A DNA stretch of 64,000 nt from Bordetella parapertussis (GTDB lineage: Bacteria; Pseudomonadota; Gammaproteobacteria; Burkholderiales; Burkholderiaceae_C). Numbering within the stretch: position 1 is the stretch's first letter; each line of letters starts with the position of its first letter. The DNA lies in contig CAMDXA010000003.1 in the NCBI GenBank assembly GCA_945878065.1, positions 62,001 through 126,000 of the forward strand, read 5' to 3'. Positions 12,854 to 20,155 of the stretch are shown in pieces. A program made the position numbers and the translations under genes. The notes under the pieces were generated by a model. That model was not told where the DNA came from. It saw nothing but the letters and a program-made list of their open reading frames with translations, and did no database searches.

Positions 12854-13594
12854 ATGTTGCTCATTCCCGCGATTGACCTGAAAGACGGTCATTGTGTACG
12901 CCTGATCCAAGGCGACATGAACCAATCCACCATCTTCAGCGAAAACCCGGCCGACATGGCTTTGCAATGGGTGAACAAGGGCGCCAGGCGTTTGCACCTC
13001 GTCGACTTGAACGGCGCATTCGCCGGCAAGCCGCAAAACTACAGCGCCATCCGCAGCATTTTGAAAGCGGTCGGCGACGACATACCGGTGCAACTCGGCG
13101 GCGGCATCCGCGACTTAGACACCATTGAAAAATACATAGACGGCGGCGTACGCTACATCATCATCGGCACGGCGGCAGTGAAAAATCCCGGCTTTTTGCA
13201 AGACGCGTGCAGCGCGTTTGGCGGCCACATCATCGTTGGCCTGGATGCGAAAGACGGCAAAGTCGCCACCGACGGCTGGAGCAAAATGACCGGCCACGAA
13301 GTGGTGGACTTGGGCAAAAAATTTGAAGACTACGGTGTCGAGTCCATCATTTACACCGACATCGGCCGTGACGGCATGCTGAGCGGCATCAACATCGAAG
13401 CCACGGTCAAACTGGCACAGGCCTTGTCCATTCCCGTTATTGCCTCCGGCGGTTTATCGAATATCCAAGACATAGAAAAGCTGTGCGCGGTCGAGGACGA
13501 AGGCATTGAAGGTGTGATTTGCGGTCGTGCCATTTACAGCGGCGACCTCGATTTTGAAAAGGCCCAAGACCGGGCCGACGAACTCAACGGCTGA
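12854..13594 (+). CDS. hisA: ProFAR isomerase (phosphoribosylformimino-AICAR-P isomerase)
   Basis: TIM-barrel isomerase of 246 residues that opens the ribose ring of ProFAR. The catalytic Asp of the first strand is in PAIDLKDG and the second in TDIGRDGML; phosphate-binding loops GGGIRD and ASGGLSN are present. The stop is one base before the hisF start, so the two barrels are tightly coupled. Confidence 0.97.
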
Positions 13595-13595
13595 C

Positions 13596-14396
13596 ATGCT
13601 GGCCAAACGCATCATTCCCTGTCTGGACGTGACCGCCGGACGGGTGGTCAAGGGCGTGAACTTTTTAGAGTTGCGCGACGCCGGTGACCCGGTGGAAATT
13701 GCGGCCCGCTACAACGCGCAGGGCGCAGACGAACTGACATTTTTAGATATCACCGCCACCAGCGACGGGCGGGATGTGATTTTGCACATCATCGAAGCCG
13801 TGGCTTCACAAGTGTTTATTCCACTCACCGTCGGCGGCGGCGTACGCACTGTGGAAGACGTGCGCCGGTTGCTGAACGCCGGTGCGGACAAAACCAGTTT
13901 CAACTCGGCGGCCATTGCCAACCCGCAAGTGATACGCGACGCCTCGGACAAATACGGTTCGCAATGCATCGTGGTGGCGATAGATGCCAAACGACGTAGC
14001 GCCGAAGAAGAACAGCGAACAGGTGCCAACGGTTTGCCCGTGGGCCCGGGCTGGGACGTGTTCAGCCACGGCGGACGCAAAAACGTCGGGCTGGACGCGG
14101 TGGCTTGGGCCACACAAATGGCCGAGTACGGTGCGGGCGAAATATTGCTGACCAGCATGGACCGCGACGGTACGAAGTCGGGCTTTGACCTGGCGCTGAC
14201 CCGCGCGGTCAGCGACGCGGTGCCGGTGCCGGTGATTGCATCTGGCGGCGTGGGCACGCTGGACCATTTGGCCGACGGCATACAAACCGGCGGTGCTGAC
14301 GCGGTGTTGGCGGCGAGCATTTTTCACTATGGTGAATTTACGGTGGGGCAGGCCAAGCAGCATATGGCGGGGCGCGGGATACCTGTGAGGTTGTGA
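13596..14396 (+). CDS. hisF: Imidazole glycerol phosphate synthase, cyclase subunit
   Basis: TIM-barrel cyclase of 266 residues that forms IGP and AICAR with HisH. Catalytic aspartates appear in IIPCLDV and SMDRDGT; GGGVRT and ASGGVGT bind phosphate. I use the ATG at 13596 ([12 protein letters not shown]), one base after hisA; the open frame upstream overlaps hisA. In most Burkholderiales hisI follows at once; here the stop is followed eight bases later by the end of a broken integrase gene and hisI resumes 5.3 kb away. Confidence 0.97.
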
Positions 14397-14403
14397 TGTC
14401 TGC

Positions 14404-14835
14404 TCAGACCTGAAGCAGTGAATCCAAAGGGCTGGCCGTGCCACCCGCTGCCACCTTGAGCACATGGGTGTAAATCATCGTTGTCGAAACGTCTGAATGA
14501 CCCAGCAACTCTTGCACCGTGCGAATGTCGGTGCCCGATTGCAGCAAACGCAAGGCCGGTACAAAAACAGCAGAGTACTGAGCGCTTGGTTGTGAGTGAA
14601 GGCCGATGCCTTGCGCTCATGGGCCAGCATGGATAAAACGCTTCTACATCGGCCACACCCATCTCGCGGGGGGTGACGCATACCACCGTACTGCATCGCA
14701 CTCCAGCGGATGAAAAAACAAATCCAATAAAGGTAATCCTTCTCGGTTTTTGAGGCTATAGTGCTTATACCGAACCTGCTCGCGCACCTGATCGAGCAAG
14801 CGGGTGGACTGCAAGGAAGGAGTACCGAGTTTCAT
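14404..14835 (-). pseudogene. intI: Integron integrase (intI), frameshifted and internally deleted
   Basis: Reading the minus strand from 14835, MKLGTPSLQSTRLLDQV and VRYKHYSLKNREG match the IntI N-terminus. The match then jumps frame to WICFFIRWSAM, again to PREMGVADVEAF, and again to [13 protein letters not shown] with [15 protein letters not shown]. After that most of the catalytic domain, including the box I Arg and the IntI-specific insert, is missing. The frame ending at 14404 restores the C-terminus [20 protein letters not shown], then [14 protein letters not shown] with the catalytic Tyr, ending SPLDSLLQV. About 430 bp remain of the usual 950-1000 bp. Several independent lesions make this a decayed gene rather than a sequencing error. 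Confidence 0.9.
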
Positions 14836-14977
14836 GGCCAATTTATATCTGTATGAAATTACAGTAGATGGATCTGCATGCCAAGGCGCAAGCGGCTTGG
14901 AGCCATTTCATTCAAAAGATGTATCGACCCTGCCCGGATGTATCCACCGGGTTTTGCGGTCTACATTGCGTTATGCC
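14836..14977 (+). other. attI-like recombination region between intI and first cassette
   Basis: This 135-bp stretch holds the intI promoter and ends with the joint G|TTATGCC (14970/14971), where an attI site is expected. No credible gene is seen in it. I could not identify the second integrase-binding box or a convincing outward cassette promoter (Pc); the exact attI limits are therefore unknown. Confidence 0.5.
14849..14864. promoter_or_regulatory. LexA (SOS) box upstream of intI
   Basis: The sequence CTGTATGAAATTACAG is a perfect CTG-N10-CAG LexA site with the preferred TA-rich core, 13 bases upstream of the broken intI start codon. On the intI strand an AT-rich TATAAA-like -10 lies between the box and the ATG. 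SOS control of integron integrases is well established, so this site independently supports the integrase assignment. Confidence 0.75.
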
Positions 14978-15856
14978 TAAGGACCACCAATGCTGAAGTC
15001 GCACATGGATGCTGTGGAGACGTCCCTAATCCATATCTCCAACATACCCGCCAACGCCGGGCATACGCTGCATCGTGGCACTCCAAGAGAAGCCTTCATA
15101 AAGGAATTTCTTGAGGGACACCTAAGCGCAAACGTCGCAATCGGTACTGGCGAAATTATTGACGCCAGTTCACAACCTCGCGCGCCTCGCAACCAGTTCG
15201 ATATCGTCATTTATAAGAACAACTACCCGAAGCTCGACTTCGGAGGTGGTATCAACGGATTCATGATCGAATCAGTCGTCGCAACTATTGAAGTCAAATC
15301 GGTCCTTGATCAAGCGGCTATCGACCAATCCGTGAGGGCAGCACACGCAGCTAAGAGCCTTACCCCGAACATCAACACCAGCTTTAGTACGGGCTGGATA
15401 CCTCCACGTGTTTTGAATTTCGTTGTGGCCTACATGGGGCCGGCCCAAATGAGTACCGTGCACTCATGGATCGTTAATTCACACACAACTCAGAACATAC
15501 CGCTACCCACATGGAATTCAGATAATCGTGTATCAGTGCCTGGAACGGCGTTGGATGGTGTGTTTCTGTTGCAAAAGGGTTTCGTTAAGCTGGACAACTC
15601 GCCTATGACGCTAAATACGCATCAACCTCCAGTAGCGGGCACGCATGTCATTTGCGATTCAAGTTCCGGAAACTTGCTAATGTTGTTCTTGGCGCTACAG
15701 GAAGCGTGCGACAACGTGCAGGGCGCATGGCTCAATGCCATACCGTACCTTCAGTCAGTTCGGTTTCAAAATGTACGCATTGCGTAGGCAAGGCATAACC
15801 CGGCAGTCCACGCGGACGCTGCGCGATAAAGTCGCGCAGCGCCGGTTACCTTCACG
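14971..15856 (+). mobile_element. Integron gene cassette 1 (DUF6602 protein)
   Basis: An 886-bp cassette bounded by G|TTATGCC on the left and G|TTAGCC on the right. It holds one gene with its own Shine-Dalgarno (AAGGA, 14979-14983) and ends with a compact attC. The R'' of that attC exactly mirrors the left joint. Confidence 0.85.
14990..15787 (+). CDS. DUF6602 / PD-(D/E)XK-like predicted nuclease, cassette-borne
   Basis: A 265-residue soluble protein. The N-terminal half fits the DUF6602 pattern: HRGTPREAFIKEFL near residue 28, GTGEIIDASS, NQFDIVIY near residue 68 and VVATIEVKS near residue 97. The D...ExK arrangement (QFDIVIY then IEVK) is the active-site layout of PD-(D/E)XK nucleases. The C-terminal half is not recognised. 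It has no signal peptide or membrane helix, so it acts in the cytoplasm. Whether it is an anti-phage effector, as many such nuclease folds are, is inference. The AAGGA six bases before the ATG at 14990 decides the start. The stop is four bases before attC1. Confidence 0.7.
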   Translation: MLKSHMDAVETSLIHISNIPANAGHTLHRGTPREAFIKEFLEGHLSANVAIGTGEIIDASSQPRAPRNQFDIVIYKNNYPKLDFGGGINGFMIESVVATIEVKSVLDQAAIDQSVRAAHAAKSLTPNINTSFSTGWIPPRVLNFVVAYMGPAQMSTVHSWIVNSHTTQNIPLPTWNSDNRVSVPGTALDGVFLLQKGFVKLDNSPMTLNTHQPPVAGTHVICDSSSGNLLMLFLALQEACDNVQGAWLNAIPYLQSVRFQNVRIA

Positions 15857-15862
15857 TTAGCC
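15792..15862 (+). repeat. attC site of cassette 1
   Basis: R'' is GGCATAAC (15792-15799) and R' is GTTAGCC (15856-15862). Between them CCGGC pairs with GCCGG, and a perfect 9-bp stem GCTGCGCGA/TCGCGCAGC closes a TAAAG loop. Recombination occurs between G15856 and T15857. It is nearly the same as attC3 in sequence and length, and unlike attC2. Confidence 0.85.
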
Positions 15863-16738
15863 ATCCCATGACCACCATCCACTCACATGCCTGTCATCAA
15901 ACAACTGCTAAAAGAGTTCTGGCTCCCAGTGCTAGTCGCCATTGCTTGGACTATTTATAACGTCAATTCAGCACCCAAAGTGCAAACCACTTTGAAAGAT
16001 GCCATAAACATTTTCGGCCCAACTTTCTTCTTTGCAAGCTGGCTAATAGCACAATGGTATCGAGTAAAGAAACAACAGAAGGTCGAGCAGGGACTAGTTG
16101 GCATCGAATCCAAGATCCAAAAGAATCTGGATGATCTGGATAAAAAGACTCAGGACTTAGTTTCGTACATAACGGGAGGCGCCAGCGCCTGCTATTTGGT
16201 CATGTCGCAAATCAGCACCGACCGAATCGGCAGCCTAGTGTTGGTGCATGTAGGAGATCACCCGCTTTATGAAATCAATGCGCGAATTGTCGATTTGGAA
16301 ATATTTGACCAAACCAAAGACAATATGACTCCTGAAAGCCTAAGGGCCTCAGAAACCGTAATCAGCTTTGGGAACTTGACCGTGGGCCATGCACTAATGA
16401 CCTCTCATCAATTTAATCTTGGAACAACGTCACCCCGGCGATTCAACATTTTCTTCTCAGCTAGAAATGGCAGTTTTACTCAACTCCTGAGATTCGCCAG
16501 GGTGGACGGAAAGTGGATCCATGCAATTAAGGTCATGAGGGACGAGACCGTACTTTACGAATCCGTGCAGCCAGAGTACCCGAAGGGCGCGGGCGGTCAG
16601 GTTGCGTGGGATGCCTAACCCCTCGCTCAAGCTGAGCACCAACGGCGTGTCACGCTGTTCGCCTGGCTCAGGGCCTTCGGCCCATTTTGCGCCAGCCGCC
16701 CATCGCGCCACACCGTTGGCGCCCGCTTAGCTCTAACG
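15857..16738 (+). mobile_element. Integron gene cassette 2 (membrane protein of unknown function)
   Basis: An 882-bp cassette from G|TTAGCC to G|TTATGCC with one gene and a long attC of a different sequence class from its neighbours. Its R'' (GCCTAAC) matches the reverse complement of its left joint (GGCTAAC) at all but one position. Confidence 0.82.
15887..16618 (+). CDS. Two-helix membrane protein of unknown function, cassette-borne
   Basis: A 243-residue protein I do not recognise. Residues 12-26 (WLPVLVAIAWTIYNV) and about 43-58 (FGPTFFFASWLIAQWY) look like two membrane helices; residues 62-92 are charged and heptad-like (EQGLVGIESKIQKNLDDLDK), suggesting a coiled coil. The rest is a soluble domain rich in beta strands, with no known catalytic motif. 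A short-hairpin membrane anchor with a sensor-like cytoplasmic domain is a plausible reading, but no function is claimed. The stop TAA lies inside the R'' box of attC2, a common cassette arrangement. No clear ribosome binding site precedes the ATG. Confidence 0.7.
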   Translation: MPVIKQLLKEFWLPVLVAIAWTIYNVNSAPKVQTTLKDAINIFGPTFFFASWLIAQWYRVKKQQKVEQGLVGIESKIQKNLDDLDKKTQDLVSYITGGASACYLVMSQISTDRIGSLVLVHVGDHPLYEINARIVDLEIFDQTKDNMTPESLRASETVISFGNLTVGHALMTSHQFNLGTTSPRRFNIFFSARNGSFTQLLRFARVDGKWIHAIKVMRDETVLYESVQPEYPKGAGGQVAWDA

Positions 16739-16744
16739 TTATGC
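16613..16744 (+). repeat. attC site of cassette 2
   Basis: R'' GCCTAAC (16613-16619), L'' GCTCAAGC (16625-16632), L' GCTTAGC (16725-16731) and R' GTTATGC (16738-16744). L'' and L' pair with one extra base in L'', the extrahelical base that directs strand choice by IntI. An internal stem CCAACGG/CCGTTGG lies nearer the centre. At about 132 bp it is nearly twice the length of attC1 and attC3, pointing to a different donor integron. Confidence 0.83.
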
Positions 16745-17951
16745 CTTCAATCTCGGTACATGAGCAGCCAATGCCACAACGAATCTACTTTGACGAATCT
16801 GGGTTTACAGGGAATAACCTCCTTAACCCTGATCAAAAGTTTTTTGCCTACGCATCCGTAGCAACAGACGACCAAGAGGCCAAAGATTTCGTCCTCGGGA
16901 TCATTAAGAAGTACGGCATTCAAAACGGGGAATTGAAGGGCAGCAAACTCGTCAAATTCAACAAAGGCAGGAAGGCGATTGACGATATATTCGAGCATTA
17001 CGAAGGGCGACTTAAAGTTTCAATTTCTGACAAGAAGTTCGCCCTAGCGTGCAAGTTCTTTGAGTACATCTTTGAGCCATGCTTTTCAGACATCAACTCG
17101 CTGTTCTATGGAGTGGGATTTCACCGATTTATCGCAAATATTCTGTATGTGGAGTTCATGGCTAGAGGGGCGGGAGCAGAAGAAATATTCGGTGAGTTCG
17201 AGGCATTAATGGGCACAAAGGACGAGGCGAATCTTCAAGGCATATTTTCGTCGTCGATGCATCCTGAAAACTCGCCGATCATTACTCAAATCCGAGAATT
17301 CGCACAATGCCGGGCTGGAGATATTCGGGAGGAACTATCTTCGCTGAACGATTCGGGCGTGGGAAAGTGGATTCTCGACCTTACGAATTCTGCGCTCTTC
17401 ACATTGCTTGCGCATTGGGGTACTGAGTTTGCTGAAGTTACGGCAGTTTGCGATCCATCAAAACCGCTACAACATGAGCAAACAATGTTCGATGCGATGA
17501 TTGGACGAAAGGATCAACTATTCAGTAAAGGCTACGGAGAAAAGCATCCGATTACGTTCAATCTCTCAGGACCAATCGAATTCCTGGACTCCAAAACCAC
17601 TCACGGCATTCAAATTGCAGATGCGGTGGCTGCTGCTGCGGTGTACGTTTTTTCTGGAGCGGATGATGATCATGCGAAGCGATGGAGGTCAATTTTGCCA
17701 AGCATCGGACATTACGGAAGCATCATTCCCGATCGAGATGAACTCAATCTTAAAGATAGAAGGGCGCAGCGAAATGCGGTTCTTCTTTTGGAACTACACT
17801 CACGCGCCAAAAAAGGAGTGAGCCTAATCGATGGCATGGGTGAGTATGTGCAGTTGATTACTCAAAGGCTCGCAACTGATCCCATATGGCATAACCCGGC
17901 AGTCCACACGGACCTTGCGCATAAAGCCGCGCAAGGCCGGTGACTTCTACG
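16739..17951 (+). mobile_element. Integron gene cassette 3 (DUF3800 protein)
   Basis: A 1213-bp cassette from G|TTATGCC to G|TTAAAAG with one gene and a short attC whose R'' (GGCATAAC) exactly mirrors the left joint. It is the last cassette with a recognisable attC. Because the joint contains ATG, an in-frame start is created right at the recombination point. Confidence 0.85.
16771..17943 (+). CDS. DUF3800 domain protein, cassette-borne
   Basis: A 390-residue protein with the DUF3800 layout: N-terminal IYFDESGFTG (acidic residues of a proposed RNase H-like fold) and, near residue 280, a second acidic cluster in HGIQIADAVAAAAV. DUF3800 proteins are common in mobile regions and defence islands; their biochemical role is not settled. 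The in-frame ATG at 16741 lies inside the cassette joint; MPQRIYFDESG at 16771 matches the family start better and is chosen. The last 18 or so residues are encoded by the attC3 sequence itself, so the C-terminal tail is a by-product of the recombination site. Confidence 0.75.
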   Translation: MPQRIYFDESGFTGNNLLNPDQKFFAYASVATDDQEAKDFVLGIIKKYGIQNGELKGSKLVKFNKGRKAIDDIFEHYEGRLKVSISDKKFALACKFFEYIFEPCFSDINSLFYGVGFHRFIANILYVEFMARGAGAEEIFGEFEALMGTKDEANLQGIFSSSMHPENSPIITQIREFAQCRAGDIREELSSLNDSGVGKWILDLTNSALFTLLAHWGTEFAEVTAVCDPSKPLQHEQTMFDAMIGRKDQLFSKGYGEKHPITFNLSGPIEFLDSKTTHGIQIADAVAAAAVYVFSGADDDHAKRWRSILPSIGHYGSIIPDRDELNLKDRRAQRNAVLLLELHSRAKKGVSLIDGMGEYVQLITQRLATDPIWHNPAVHTDLAHKAAQGR

Positions 17952-17957
17952 TTAAAA
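17888..17957 (+). repeat. attC site of cassette 3
   Basis: R'' GGCATAAC (17888-17895), CCGGC/GCCGG pair, stem CCTTGCGC/GCGCAAGG, and R' GTTAAAA (17951-17957). It closely resembles attC1 along its whole length. It overlaps the 3' end of the DUF3800 gene. No further attC is detected to the right. Confidence 0.85.
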
Positions 17958-17967
17958 GACTCGTAAT

Positions 17968-18103
17968 GCGTATCCGTCCAGCCATCCCATCTTGAATGAT
18001 GCGTTTTAAATGAGCAAGATGGTGTGCACTTAACTATCGTGGACACTTATCTCTTATTTAATGCATTTGACTACGTCAAGATGGGATGGCGGGACGGATA
18101 CGC
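17968..18103. repeat. 28-bp imperfect inverted repeat around an 80-bp spacer
   Basis: The arms 17968-17995 and 18076-18103 are reverse complements with one mismatch. Both outward-reading arms contain AAGATGGGATGG and could encode the same short peptide (MGW-DGYA), suggesting an inverted duplication of a coding fragment rather than a transposon end. A short open frame runs through the right arm and stops at 18193-18195. The stretch 17952-18211 has no gene I can support. It begins directly at the last cassette joint and may be the remains of a fourth cassette. Confidence 0.6.
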
Positions 18104-18211
18104 CGCAAGTGCAAAATTCACCGATGCAGCTGCTAGGAAATCCCGCGCTATTTGCTTGGCAGTATTTCATGGCGGCACAGGCCTCGCCATTTGACAGTCA
18201 AGATACTCACC

Positions 18212-18533
18212 ATGCCAAATCAACCATCCCCTATTTCAGTTATCGCACTAGACGCTCCCAAGCGAATCAAACCTTCCAACTATCCTTCACCCTTTGCATC
18301 CCAAATGGAAGGTCGCGAGAAACGCCCGCTTGTCGCCCGGTATGTGTGCTGGCTTCAAGGCGGGTAGTGGCAACGGTCATCGGTTGGTTAACGAAACATT
18401 GGAAGTTGTCGTCTATTTGGAAGTGGGTGATCGGAGTCCTGAAGACAAGGCTTATTACCCTGACGATGACATCAAGGCCGTCATGATGGATGGCAAGTGG
18501 TCCTTTCAGCACAAGGACGGCAGGCCGTATTGA
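18212..18533 (+). pseudogene. Cupin-domain protein, internally deleted and frameshifted
   Basis: From the ATG at 18212 the frame reads MPNQPSPISVIALDAPKRI and then NYPSPFASQMEGREKRPL, which matches the N-terminus of a small cupin family. It then joins, in a different frame, to SPGMCAGFKAGSGNGHRLV with VYLEVGDRSPEDKAYYPDDD and ends with FQHKDGRPY, the normal C-terminus. The central part, roughly 40-45 codons holding the metal-binding cupin motif 1, is missing. The gene is therefore dead. It may have been a passenger of the lost fourth cassette or of the chromosome. Confidence 0.8.
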
Positions 18534-18551
18534 TAATCGTGCCTTGATACA

Positions 18552-18570
18552 GGTACCGATAAATAGTACC
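18552..18570. promoter_or_regulatory. Operator-like palindrome upstream of hicA
   Basis: GGTAC and GTACC are separated by nine AT-rich bases and lie 8 bp before the hicA ATG. HicB antitoxins commonly autoregulate through such palindromes at their promoter, so this is a likely HicB operator. The -10 and -35 boxes could not be fixed. Confidence 0.5.
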
Positions 18571-18578
18571 ATTTCGGC

Positions 18579-18833
18579 ATGAAGCGAAAACACCAACGCA
18601 CCCTCGCTCTGATTTTTGCAAGGCCAACAAGCGCTAACGTTCAGTGGCGCGACATTGAAGCCATGTTTCAGGAACTGGGTGCAGAGGTCAGCGAGCGAGA
18701 AGGCAGTCGCGTGGCGGTGGTGATGTATGGCGAGGTCAGGGTTTTTCACAGACCCCATCCATCCCCCAACACCGTCAAAAGTGCTGTTGCAAGCATTCGC
18801 AAATGGCTAGAACAACACGGAGTAGAACCATGA
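18579..18833 (+). CDS. hicA: HicA-type mRNA interferase toxin
   Basis: An 84-residue toxin of the type II HicAB system, expected to cleave mRNA until bound by HicB. Family marks are RTLALIFARP, SANVQWRDIEAMFQELG and the conserved His region FHRPHPSP near residue 50-57. It appears complete. The stop TGA overlaps the hicB start (ATGA). Toxin-first order is usual for HicAB. Confidence 0.9.
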   Translation: MKRKHQRTLALIFARPTSANVQWRDIEAMFQELGAEVSEREGSRVAVVMYGEVRVFHRPHPSPNTVKSAVASIRKWLEQHGVEP

Positions 18834-19162
18834 ACACAATGACTGTTGACGGCTTTAACGCCAAGATTGAATATGACGAAGAGCTTGATCTCTTTCGCGG
18901 AGAAATCTTGGGGCTCAATGGCGGGGCTGACTTCTATGGAAAGAATCCCAAGGAGTTACGCACAGAGTTCAAAAAATCTTTGCAAGTTTTCTTGGATGTA
19001 TGTAAAGAAAAAGGCATTCAGCCAAAAAGGAATTTTTCAGGCAAATTCAATCTCCGCATTTCACCAGAGCTGCATGAACAACTGGTATTGGCGGCTCAAG
19101 CGGAAGGTAAAAGCATCAACATGGTGGCGCAAGAAGCATTGCAACTTCGTATGGCTTCTTAA
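18830..19162 (+). CDS. hicB: HicB-type antitoxin
   Basis: A 110-residue antitoxin. The N-terminal partial RNase H-like fold is seen in YDEELDLFRGEILGLNGG, and the C-terminal DNA-binding segment in LRISPELHEQLVLAAQAEG with SINMVAQEAL, a ribbon-helix-helix type end. The ATG at 18830 overlaps the hicA stop; an in-frame start upstream would lie inside hicA. Together with hicA it is the only intact module in the right third of the insertion and may stabilise it. Confidence 0.9.
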   Translation: MNTMTVDGFNAKIEYDEELDLFRGEILGLNGGADFYGKNPKELRTEFKKSLQVFLDVCKEKGIQPKRNFSGKFNLRISPELHEQLVLAAQAEGKSINMVAQEALQLRMAS

Positions 19163-19191
19163 ATCCGCATGGCGGAGCGGCTGAGCAAGAT

Positions 19192-19352
19192 TTAAATCCC
19201 CGCTGCTTCTTGCATCCAAGCAGGTATATCCCGCTGACCATGCAACACCCGCCAAACATCAATATGGTCTGGGCGCTCAACGTAAAAAACCAAATGTGGA
19301 AATCAACATCCTGATTGGCAAACTGACGCGGGACGATGGGTTTGGAATTCAC
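19192..19352 (-). pseudogene. RelE/ParE-family toxin, internally deleted
   Basis: On the minus strand, a GTG at 19352 begins VNSKPIVPRQFANQDVD, the usual N-terminus of a ParE-like toxin. After a frame change, HLVFYVERPDHIDVWRVLHG and QRDIPAWMQEAAGI give an intact C-terminus. The middle, perhaps 40-50 codons, is absent, so no active toxin is made. The start codon overlaps the parD stop (GTGA). Confidence 0.82.
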
Positions 19353-19600
19353 GCCTTGTTGCGAGCCTTGCTTGCATTGACCGCAGTGTCGCGCAAACTG
19401 TCAAAGTAGGCAGGCGTCACAGCTTGAGTAGGTTCTGAACCGGCACCTTCCAAGAGCAAGCTATGCAACTGCAGTCGATCCAGTTCCTTGCGAATCAGTT
19501 CACGCACATACTCACTGCTGGTGCCATAGCCTCGCTGGCTTACCTGCTCGTCTACAAATGCCTTGAGTGTGTCGGGTAAAGAAATATTCATCATGCTCAT
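19349..19600 (-). CDS. ParD-like antitoxin, orphaned
   Basis: An 83-residue ribbon-helix-helix antitoxin: MNISLPDTLKAFVDEQV, then GYGTSSEYVRELIRKELDR, which is the ParD/CopG pattern. It is complete, but its toxin partner next door is deleted, so it survives without a target in cis. It runs opposite to hisI; its upstream region (19601-19744) must also provide any promoter that hisIE now use. Confidence 0.85.
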   Translation of the reverse strand: MSMMNISLPDTLKAFVDEQVSQRGYGTSSEYVRELIRKELDRLQLHSLLLEGAGSEPTQAVTPAYFDSLRDTAVNASKARNKA

Positions 19601-19744
19601 GCGGTCAGTTTAGAGTCCTTGGCAAAATTTGGCAATAACTCGGATCCCAAAACATTGAGAGTTTGAACATCGTTTTAAAAGTCTTTCTCAACGCTTTTTC
19701 TGAATCCTTATCTCTGACGTGTGATGCCCTTAACATCTCCCCCT

Positions 19745-20155
19745 ATGAATTGGCTTGATCACATCAAATGGGACGCGCAAGGCCTGGTGCCCGTCATCGC
19801 GCAAGAGCAGGGCAGCAAAGACGTGCTGATGTTCGCTTGGATGAACCGCGAGGCGCTGCAACTCACCGCCGAGCAAGGGCGCGCCGTCTATTTCAGCCGT
19901 TCGCGCAACAAGCTTTGGTTCAAGGGCGAGGAGTCCGGCCATGTGCAATTGGTGCACGACATTCGCCTCGATTGCGACAACGACGTGGTTTTGCTCAGCG
20001 TCACGCAAACTGGCCACGACCCGAGCATTGCCTGTCACACCGGGCGTCACAGTTGTTTTTACCAGCGCTGGCAGACCGGCCCGGACGGCGGTCAGTGGCT
20101 GAGCACCGAGCCTGTATTGCAAGACCCCGCCCTTATTTATAAGAAGACACCATGA
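19745..20155 (+). CDS. hisI: Phosphoribosyl-AMP cyclohydrolase
   Basis: A 136-residue zinc enzyme of histidine synthesis that opens the adenine ring of PR-AMP. The motifs [12 protein letters not shown] and HTGRHSCFY supply the conserved Cys and His ligands. The ATG at 19745 ([10 protein letters not shown]) matches the family start; an upstream in-frame ATG adds eight unrelated residues. Separated from hisF by the insertion, it can no longer rely on simple readthrough from hisC and may need a new promoter. Confidence 0.95.

What the first reader, a model, noticed from the sequence alone, without database searches (positions are those of the whole stretch)
14404..17957. A chromosomal integron lodged inside the histidine operon
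Between hisF and hisI lie, in canonical order, a minus-strand integron integrase relic, its LexA-boxed promoter, an attI-like joint and three cassettes with legible attC sites. Burkholderiales normally keep hisBHAFIE contiguous, so the integron has split an essential biosynthetic operon. I know of no described integron at this place; novelty is my inference.
Basis: partly seen in the sequence, partly recalled or inferred. Interest (0 to 1): 0.92.

Follow-up and report, generated by a model that had tools for sequence, protein, structure and literature searches.

The report
Fossil integron inside the histidine operon
A freshwater bacterium and many of its relatives carry, wedged between two genes for making histidine, the remains of a gene-capturing device (an integron) whose enzyme is broken but whose captured genes and capture sites are still there.

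Summary
Between hisF and hisI (window 14397-19720) lie an integron-integrase (intI) pseudogene lacking most of its core, a LexA box, an attI crossover point and three cassettes. A covariance model from 20 attC sites beside intact integrases elsewhere ranks the three named sites first in the 64-kb window, two of them weakly. In 47 relatives with an enlarged or unfinished hisF-hisI interval it gives 32 hits, all inside the interval and on the hisF strand; in 47 contiguous relatives it gives none. The site is shared: 31 of 100 hisF loci surveyed in Limnohabitans and a sister genus carry intI/attI remains there; 12 other loci have the intI end at the window's exact distance from the hisF stop. No intact integrase was found in 174 genomes of the two genera; the two over-cut-off hits are broken copies at hisF, against 172 of 399 genomes over the cut-off in the wider family. 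The window's platform resembles Limnohabitans copies more than hisF does, so exchange between genera is likely. It is a decayed sedentary chromosomal integron, closest to the Xanthomonas ilvD integron: a new member of a known kind.

The parts
13599..14396 (+). hisF, the gene upstream of the insert
   Evidence: the ORF listing; homologues
14404..14841 (-). intI pseudogene: N-terminal and C-terminal pieces in different frames, most of the core missing; tail-to-tail with hisF
   Evidence: same offset from the hisF stop in 12 other loci
14849..14864 (.). LexA box CTGT-N8-ACAG upstream of intI (motif recalled, not from a call)
   Evidence: strict motif here and in L183, L203, L208, L226, L239
14905..14976 (+). 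attI region; crossover point GTTATGC at 14970
   Evidence: alignment: 15 of 18 rows keep GTT there
14990..15787 (+). cassette 1: 265 aa, DUF6602, PD-(D/E)xK / NucC-like
   Evidence: Pfam PF20247 E 8e-21; PADLOC PD_DExK 8e-22, NucC 2e-8; 938 homologues
15793..15862 (+). attC1
   Evidence: R1 E 0.17; 88% over 69 bases to L301, the blaOXA-2 attC
15887..16618 (+). cassette 2: 243 aa, no family; helices 2-28 and 36-96, then a beta domain in the model
   Evidence: no hit; 93 homologues including itself; mean pLDDT 88.3
16613..16744 (+). attC2 (long type)
   Evidence: R1 E 4.5e-9; 70% over 135 bases to a site in L299, an array beside an intact intI
16741..17943 (+). cassette 3: 400 aa, DUF3800
   Evidence: Pfam PF12686 E 1e-10; 627 homologues among the scored candidates
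17889..17957 (+). attC3
   Evidence: R1 E 0.039; 84% over 63 bases to L301
17968..18103 (.). inverted repeat, 28-nt arms, just after attC3
   Evidence: no other copy in the loci held or the rest of the window
18579..19162 (+). hicA-hicB toxin-antitoxin pair at the hisI side of the insert
   Evidence: Pfam; 84-85% DNA match in L186 and L187
19349..19600 (-). ParD-like antitoxin gene
   Evidence: below the curated cut-offs; 75% DNA match in L184
19721..20520 (+). hisI and hisE, the displaced end of the his genes
   Evidence: hisI homologues

Best explanation
An integron platform (intI-attI) sits immediately behind the hisF stop codon in many members of Limnohabitans and a sister genus, and the window holds a decayed copy. 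While its integrase worked (SOS control inferred from the LexA box) it captured cassettes at attI, so different lineages hold different arrays between hisF and hisI, read in the direction of the his genes. The integrase then decayed by different deletions and frameshifts, leaving attC-bounded cassettes that cannot be moved in cis. In the window three cassettes (a NucC-like nuclease, an unknown protein, a DUF3800 protein) keep open frames, and a HicAB pair sits towards hisI. Shown: the relic, divergence at attI, attC sites, a shared junction, broken integrases. Inferred: descent of these copies from one landing behind hisF, partly by exchange between genera; past SOS control; immobility today.
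For: attC model: its three best hits in 64 kb are the three sites; 32 of 32 hits (E up to 0.5) in 47 loci lie in the interval on the hisF strand; 0 hits in 524,782 bases of all 47 contiguous loci of the survey. attI/promoter block conserved up to the crossover point, then different sequence in most rows. intI/attI remains in 31 of 100 surveyed loci: 7 of 40 in the sister genus, 24 of 60 in Limnohabitans. Of 15 other loci with the intI 3' end, 12 share the window's offset from the hisF stop. Integrases over the cut-off: 2 of 174 genomes, both at hisF and both broken. The longest relic (L226) falls in the IntI1 branch of intact family integrases. Of 20 stretches around related integrons of the family, 0 held hisF or hisI.
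Against: attC1 and attC3 are weak by the model alone (E 0.17, 0.039). 69 of 100 loci show no relic, among them the close relatives L182 and L184, where a HicB-like gene directly follows hisF; 19 enlarged gaps show no intI/attI similarity. Carriers are scattered on the hisF tree (16 changes at fewest). The platform's kinship does not follow hisF: the window's intI-attI block is 84-87% identical to L208, L219, L226 and L239 of Limnohabitans, whose hisF is 81-82% identical, but 75-77% to L185-L187, whose hisF is 83-86% identical; simple descent from one ancestor is therefore doubtful, though faster decay in L185-L187 may contribute. L230, L239 and L262 have another offset. The window's 17957-19720 has no attC hit. 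An intact intI could be missing from draft genomes.
Confidence: 0.87

Rival explanations
1. History by exchange: the platform (or the whole hisF-hisI insert) moved between species and genera by homologous recombination, or landed repeatedly at the same point, rather than being inherited from one ancestor and lost many times. This concerns how it got there, not what it is.
For: Window block 84-87% identical to four Limnohabitans relics whose hisF is only 81-82% identical, with the last 200 bases of hisF at 73-76%; patchy distribution; L187 and L219 of different genera have a cassette starting alike; L206 and L003 share cassettes with L223, which has another intI deletion.
Against: L183 is nearest to the window in both platform (91%) and hisF (93%); the platform tree is mostly unresolved and L186/L187 relics have long branches; the shared offset fits one landing.
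Confidence: 0.5
2. The locus is still active: cassettes are exchanged today by an integrase acting in trans (plasmid or class 1 integron).
For: attC sites are well kept; attC1 and attC3 resemble the attC of blaOXA-2 in mobile integrons; arrays differ between relatives.
Against: No over-cut-off integrase away from hisF in 174 genomes; the array head is gone in L182 and L184.
Confidence: 0.12
3. hisF-hisI is a general insertion hotspot (toxin-antitoxin pairs and others), and the integron is one of several unrelated inserts.
For: 19 of 36 enlarged gaps show no intI/attI similarity; HicB-like genes directly behind hisF in L182/L184.
Against: One intI end at one offset in 12 loci plus the window and attC hits only in these intervals show one platform; relic-free gaps may be later stages of its decay.
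Confidence: 0.2

Closest known systems
Xanthomonas sedentary integron downstream of ilvD (PMC12444791, passages seen; it reports the earlier survey by Gillings and colleagues)
   Same: Platform at one fixed locus behind an amino-acid biosynthesis gene; integrase often inactivated by frameshifts, stops or deletions; arrays differ between species.
   Different: Here the platform lies between two his genes, in freshwater Burkholderiales, and no intact integrase was found in 174 genomes, whereas some Xanthomonas species keep a working one; kinship of platform and host gene disagree in part.
Chromosomal class 1-type integrons of Burkholderiales (PMC8618304 and PMC5460862, passages seen)
   Same: The hisF integrase (L226 piece) is in the IntI1 branch of a 17-row tree.
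   Different: 59% identical to IntI1 over 242 residues; fixed chromosomal site.
CALIN, an attC cluster without integrase (as used in PMC12444791)
   Same: attC-bounded cassettes without a functional integrase.
   Different: The intI relic, LexA box and attI are still recognisable.

Membership tests
Integron (functional) | intact intI | tested here: not met
   about 186 residues missing, frames broken
Integron (functional) | attI site next to intI | tested here: met
   conserved block up to the crossover point, different sequence beyond in most of 18 rows
Integron (functional) | attC sites with paired R and L arms | tested here: met
   attC2 clear; attC1 and attC3 weak by model but like the blaOXA-2 attC
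Integron (functional) | cassette promoter Pc | tested here: inconclusive
   sigma-70 consensus scan finds no more than shuffles
Sedentary chromosomal integron | same chromosomal site through a lineage | tested here: met
   31 of 100 surveyed loci, shared junction
Sedentary chromosomal integron | platform inherited with the chromosome | tested here: inconclusive
   platform and hisF kinship disagree in part; platform tree mostly unresolved
Sedentary chromosomal integron | long array with homogeneous attC | tested here: not met
   3 attC in the window, at most 5 model hits in a relative (L239), of varied type
CALIN | two or more attC sites and no functional integrase nearby | tested here: met
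Class 1 integron | IntI1 at 98% amino-acid identity (threshold seen in PMC8618304) | tested here: not met
   59% for the L226 piece; the window relic itself is too broken to score

The most novel reading that the evidence does not exclude
An integron that landed inside a biosynthetic operon turned that operon into its cassette outlet: cassettes behind hisF are transcribed from the his promoter, and the polar cost on hisIE kept arrays short and selected against the integrase, so that the clade lost integrase activity in parallel while keeping useful cassettes.
Probability: 0.25. Interest if true: 0.72.

Novelty: new member of a known kind. Interest (0 to 1): 0.52.

Why it matters
It adds another fixed address behind an amino-acid biosynthesis gene for a chromosomal integron, in a freshwater group, and offers a graded series of integrase decay (near-complete with frameshift, in-frame core deletion, head and tail only, gone) beside differing arrays. 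That makes it possible to ask what happens to cassettes after the integrase dies, how such platforms move between genera, and how an operon tolerates a cassette array in its middle.

Tried and rejected
Rfam scan of 13000-19500: three implausible sub-threshold hits, no attC family reported. My simple attC descriptor missed attC1 and attC3 and gave chance sites inside genes, so the covariance model carries the claims. Viral contigs: no relative of cassette 3. Promoter and terminator scans of 14300-19800: no more sites than in shuffles. Cassette 2 model: no PDB match at E 0.001 or better, so no function is claimed. That the attI joint is chance was rejected. That related integrons usually sit at hisF was rejected (20 stretches of 4.6 to 13 kb, picked by hand from the matches; some hold only part of an intI).

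Limits of the counts. The 100 surveyed loci are those I fetched, chosen by hand for usable contigs, out of hisF hits in 160 of 174 genomes; the fractions are not unbiased, and 17 of the 100 contigs end before hisI. 'Relic' means blastn E up to 1e-4 or tblastn E up to 1e-3; L188, L209 and L216 rest on under 100 aligned bases. The 47 test loci include 10 whose contig ends before hisI (13 of the 32 hits); for these the interval is everything downstream of hisF. Two of the 47 (L003, L025) come. In some searches not every first-look candidate was scored in every genome (at most 5), and the family sample includes members of the two genera. The 18 rows were picked by hand; L183 runs out before the crossover point and L206 and L003 lack the GTT. 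The 92 ORFs are a subset of 129 mechanical ORFs. One search scored only the 7,995 candidates sharing most words.

It went against simple descent; I therefore raised the exchange rival from 0.3 to 0.5 and reworded the best explanation (0.88 to 0.87).
Full report
What was claimed.

The observation. hisF ends at 14396 and hisI starts at 19721. The minus strand from 14404 carries pieces of an integron integrase: the C-terminal end ([25 protein letters not shown]) in one frame and N-terminal pieces in others. Against 20 integrase frames from the family, three blocks match residues 312-361 (88%), 60-125 (41%) and 11-64 (43%) of a 361-codon frame. Two pieces hit NCBIfam NF011946. About 186 residues are missing, so this copy cannot be an active recombinase. 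A strict LexA box lies at 14849-14864 and recurs in L183, L203, L208, L226 and L239, that is 6 of the 18 rows aligned.

attC test. I collected attC sites from arrays beside integrases elsewhere in the family and built a covariance model from 20 of them, out of 9 loci. Its helices show compensatory changes (46 cells changed on both sides, 14.8 in shuffles). Over the whole window the three best hits are 16613-16744 (E 4.5e-9), 17892-17954 (E 0.039) and 15793-15861 (E 0.17); the next is 6449 (E 1.1). E-values are rough by the tool's own statement. The two weak sites match the attC of blaOXA-2 at 84% over 63 and 88% over 69 bases. Over 47 relatives with an enlarged or unfinished hisF-hisI interval the model gives 32 hits in 19 loci, all inside the interval (134,465 of 477,020 bases) and on the hisF strand; 13 of the 32 are in loci whose contig ends before hisI. 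Over all 47 contiguous loci of the survey it gives none in 524,782 bases.

Comparison of the joint. hisF homologues came from 80 contigs and from 174 genomes, 90 in the genus of Limnohabitans planktonicus and 84 in a sister genus (87 and 73 with a hit). I fetched 100 hisF loci from these. In one search, 47 are contiguous (gap at most 300 bp), 36 have a larger gap (17 with intI/attI remains) and 17 run off the contig before hisI (14 with remains): 31 of 100 carry remains, 7 of 40 in the sister genus and 24 of 60 in Limnohabitans. L003 and L025 carry them too.

One platform, different cassettes. In 12 other loci the intI end lies at exactly the window's distance from the hisF stop; three more (L230, L239, L262) have it elsewhere. 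An alignment of 18 hand-picked rows shows the promoter-attI block conserved up to GTT in 15 rows (L183 runs out before it; L206 and L003 differ there) and mostly different sequence afterwards, as expected for one attI with different insertions. Among 92 ORFs from these loci, 8 match GNAT acetyltransferase, 6 glyoxalase, 3 HicB, 2 BrnA, 2 TIR and 1 Abi_alpha. Some cassettes are shared between loci (L206, L003 and L223; L187 and L219 by their starts). None of the window's three cassettes has a DNA match beyond its attC in the loci held.

State of the integrase. In the two genera the curated cut-off is passed by 2 of 90 and 0 of 84 genomes. Both are at hisF and broken: L226 (G464) is nearly complete but frameshifted with stops; L239 (G389) lacks part of the core within one frame. 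In a sample of 399 genomes of the wider family 172 pass. Of 20 stretches around related integrons of that family, 0 held hisF or hisI. The L226 piece (245 aa) groups with an intact integrase of G170 inside a branch that holds IntI1, to which it is 59% identical; its branch is long.

History. On a hisF DNA tree of 109 rows carriers are scattered through the two genera and absent from the outgroups used; the fewest changes relic/no relic are 16, with low support inside Limnohabitans. A direct comparison goes against simple descent: the window's intI-attI block is 91% identical to L183 (hisF 93%), 84-87% to L208, L219, L226 and L239 of Limnohabitans (hisF 81-82%), but only 75-77% to L185, L186 and L187, which share its hisF clade (hisF 83-86%). 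The platform tree is mostly unresolved and L185-L187 have longer branches, so faster decay there may explain part of it; exchange between genera is the likelier reading. The shared offset still points to one origin of the joint. Near the window, L182 and L184 have a HicB-like gene (PF15919) directly behind hisF and no integron remains; L181 and L001 look the same by sequence.

Mechanism. Shown: platform, divergence at attI, attC sites, broken integrase. Inferred: SOS control in the past, one original landing behind hisF, immobility in cis today. Whether cassettes and hisIE are transcribed from the his promoter is not shown: promoter and terminator scans are no better than shuffles, and a parD-like gene on the other strand before hisI may interrupt read-through.

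Cassettes in the window. Cassette 1 is a DUF6602 protein with PADLOC matches to PD_DExK (8e-22) and NucC (2e-8), suggesting a nuclease, possibly defensive. Cassette 2 has no family; its model (mean pLDDT 88.3) has two long helices and a beta domain without a confident PDB match. Cassette 3 is DUF3800. Homologues at E 0.001: 938, 93 (the window's own included) and 627.

Known relatives. The Xanthomonas integron behind ilvD is the nearest parallel: ancestral site, integrase often inactivated, arrays dynamic before inactivation (PMC12444791, passages). Integrase pseudogenes are common, about a third in an early survey (PMC2426708, passages). The class 1 ancestor is placed in a Burkholderiales chromosome (PMC8618304, passages). 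No listed paper joins an integron with hisF or hisI (20 of 77 listed, 20 of 308), and the 20 of 26 papers listed for integron and Limnohabitans look by title like resistance and water surveys (none read). The library is open access only.

Verdict. Real, well supported, and a new member of a known kind: a decayed sedentary chromosomal integron at an address that I found in no listed paper, inside the his operon, shared through a clade by descent and probably also by exchange.

Noticed in passing
window 17968-17995 and 18076-18103: Inverted repeat with 28-nt arms (96% complementary, 80 nt apart) right behind attC3; no other copy among the loci held.
   Followed up: partly
window 18579-19162: hicAB pair near hisI; 84-85% DNA matches in the hisF-downstream region of L186 and L187, so this end of the insert may be old.
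   Followed up: partly
L182 822-1217, L184 822-1217; also L001 and L181 by sequence: In the window's closest relatives another HicB-like antitoxin gene (minus strand) lies directly behind hisF, without integron remains.
   Followed up: partly
L025 8256-9074: First gene behind the attI remains in a Comamonadaceae MAG encodes a TIR-domain protein (Pfam TIR_2 E 1.9e-7), a possible defence gene.
   Followed up: no
L239 (G389) hisF-hisI gap, 7.9 kb: Longest gap and most attC model hits (five) found at this site, behind an integrase with an in-frame deletion.
   Followed up: partly
window 15887-16618: Cassette 2 belongs to an unnamed family of 93 listed proteins (itself included) with invariant residues along its length.
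   Followed up: partly
window 14397-14990 against L208, L219, L226, L239: The intI-attI block is more alike between genera than hisF is, with the last 200 bases of hisF only 73-76% identical: a sharp change at the hisF/intI border.
   Followed up: partly
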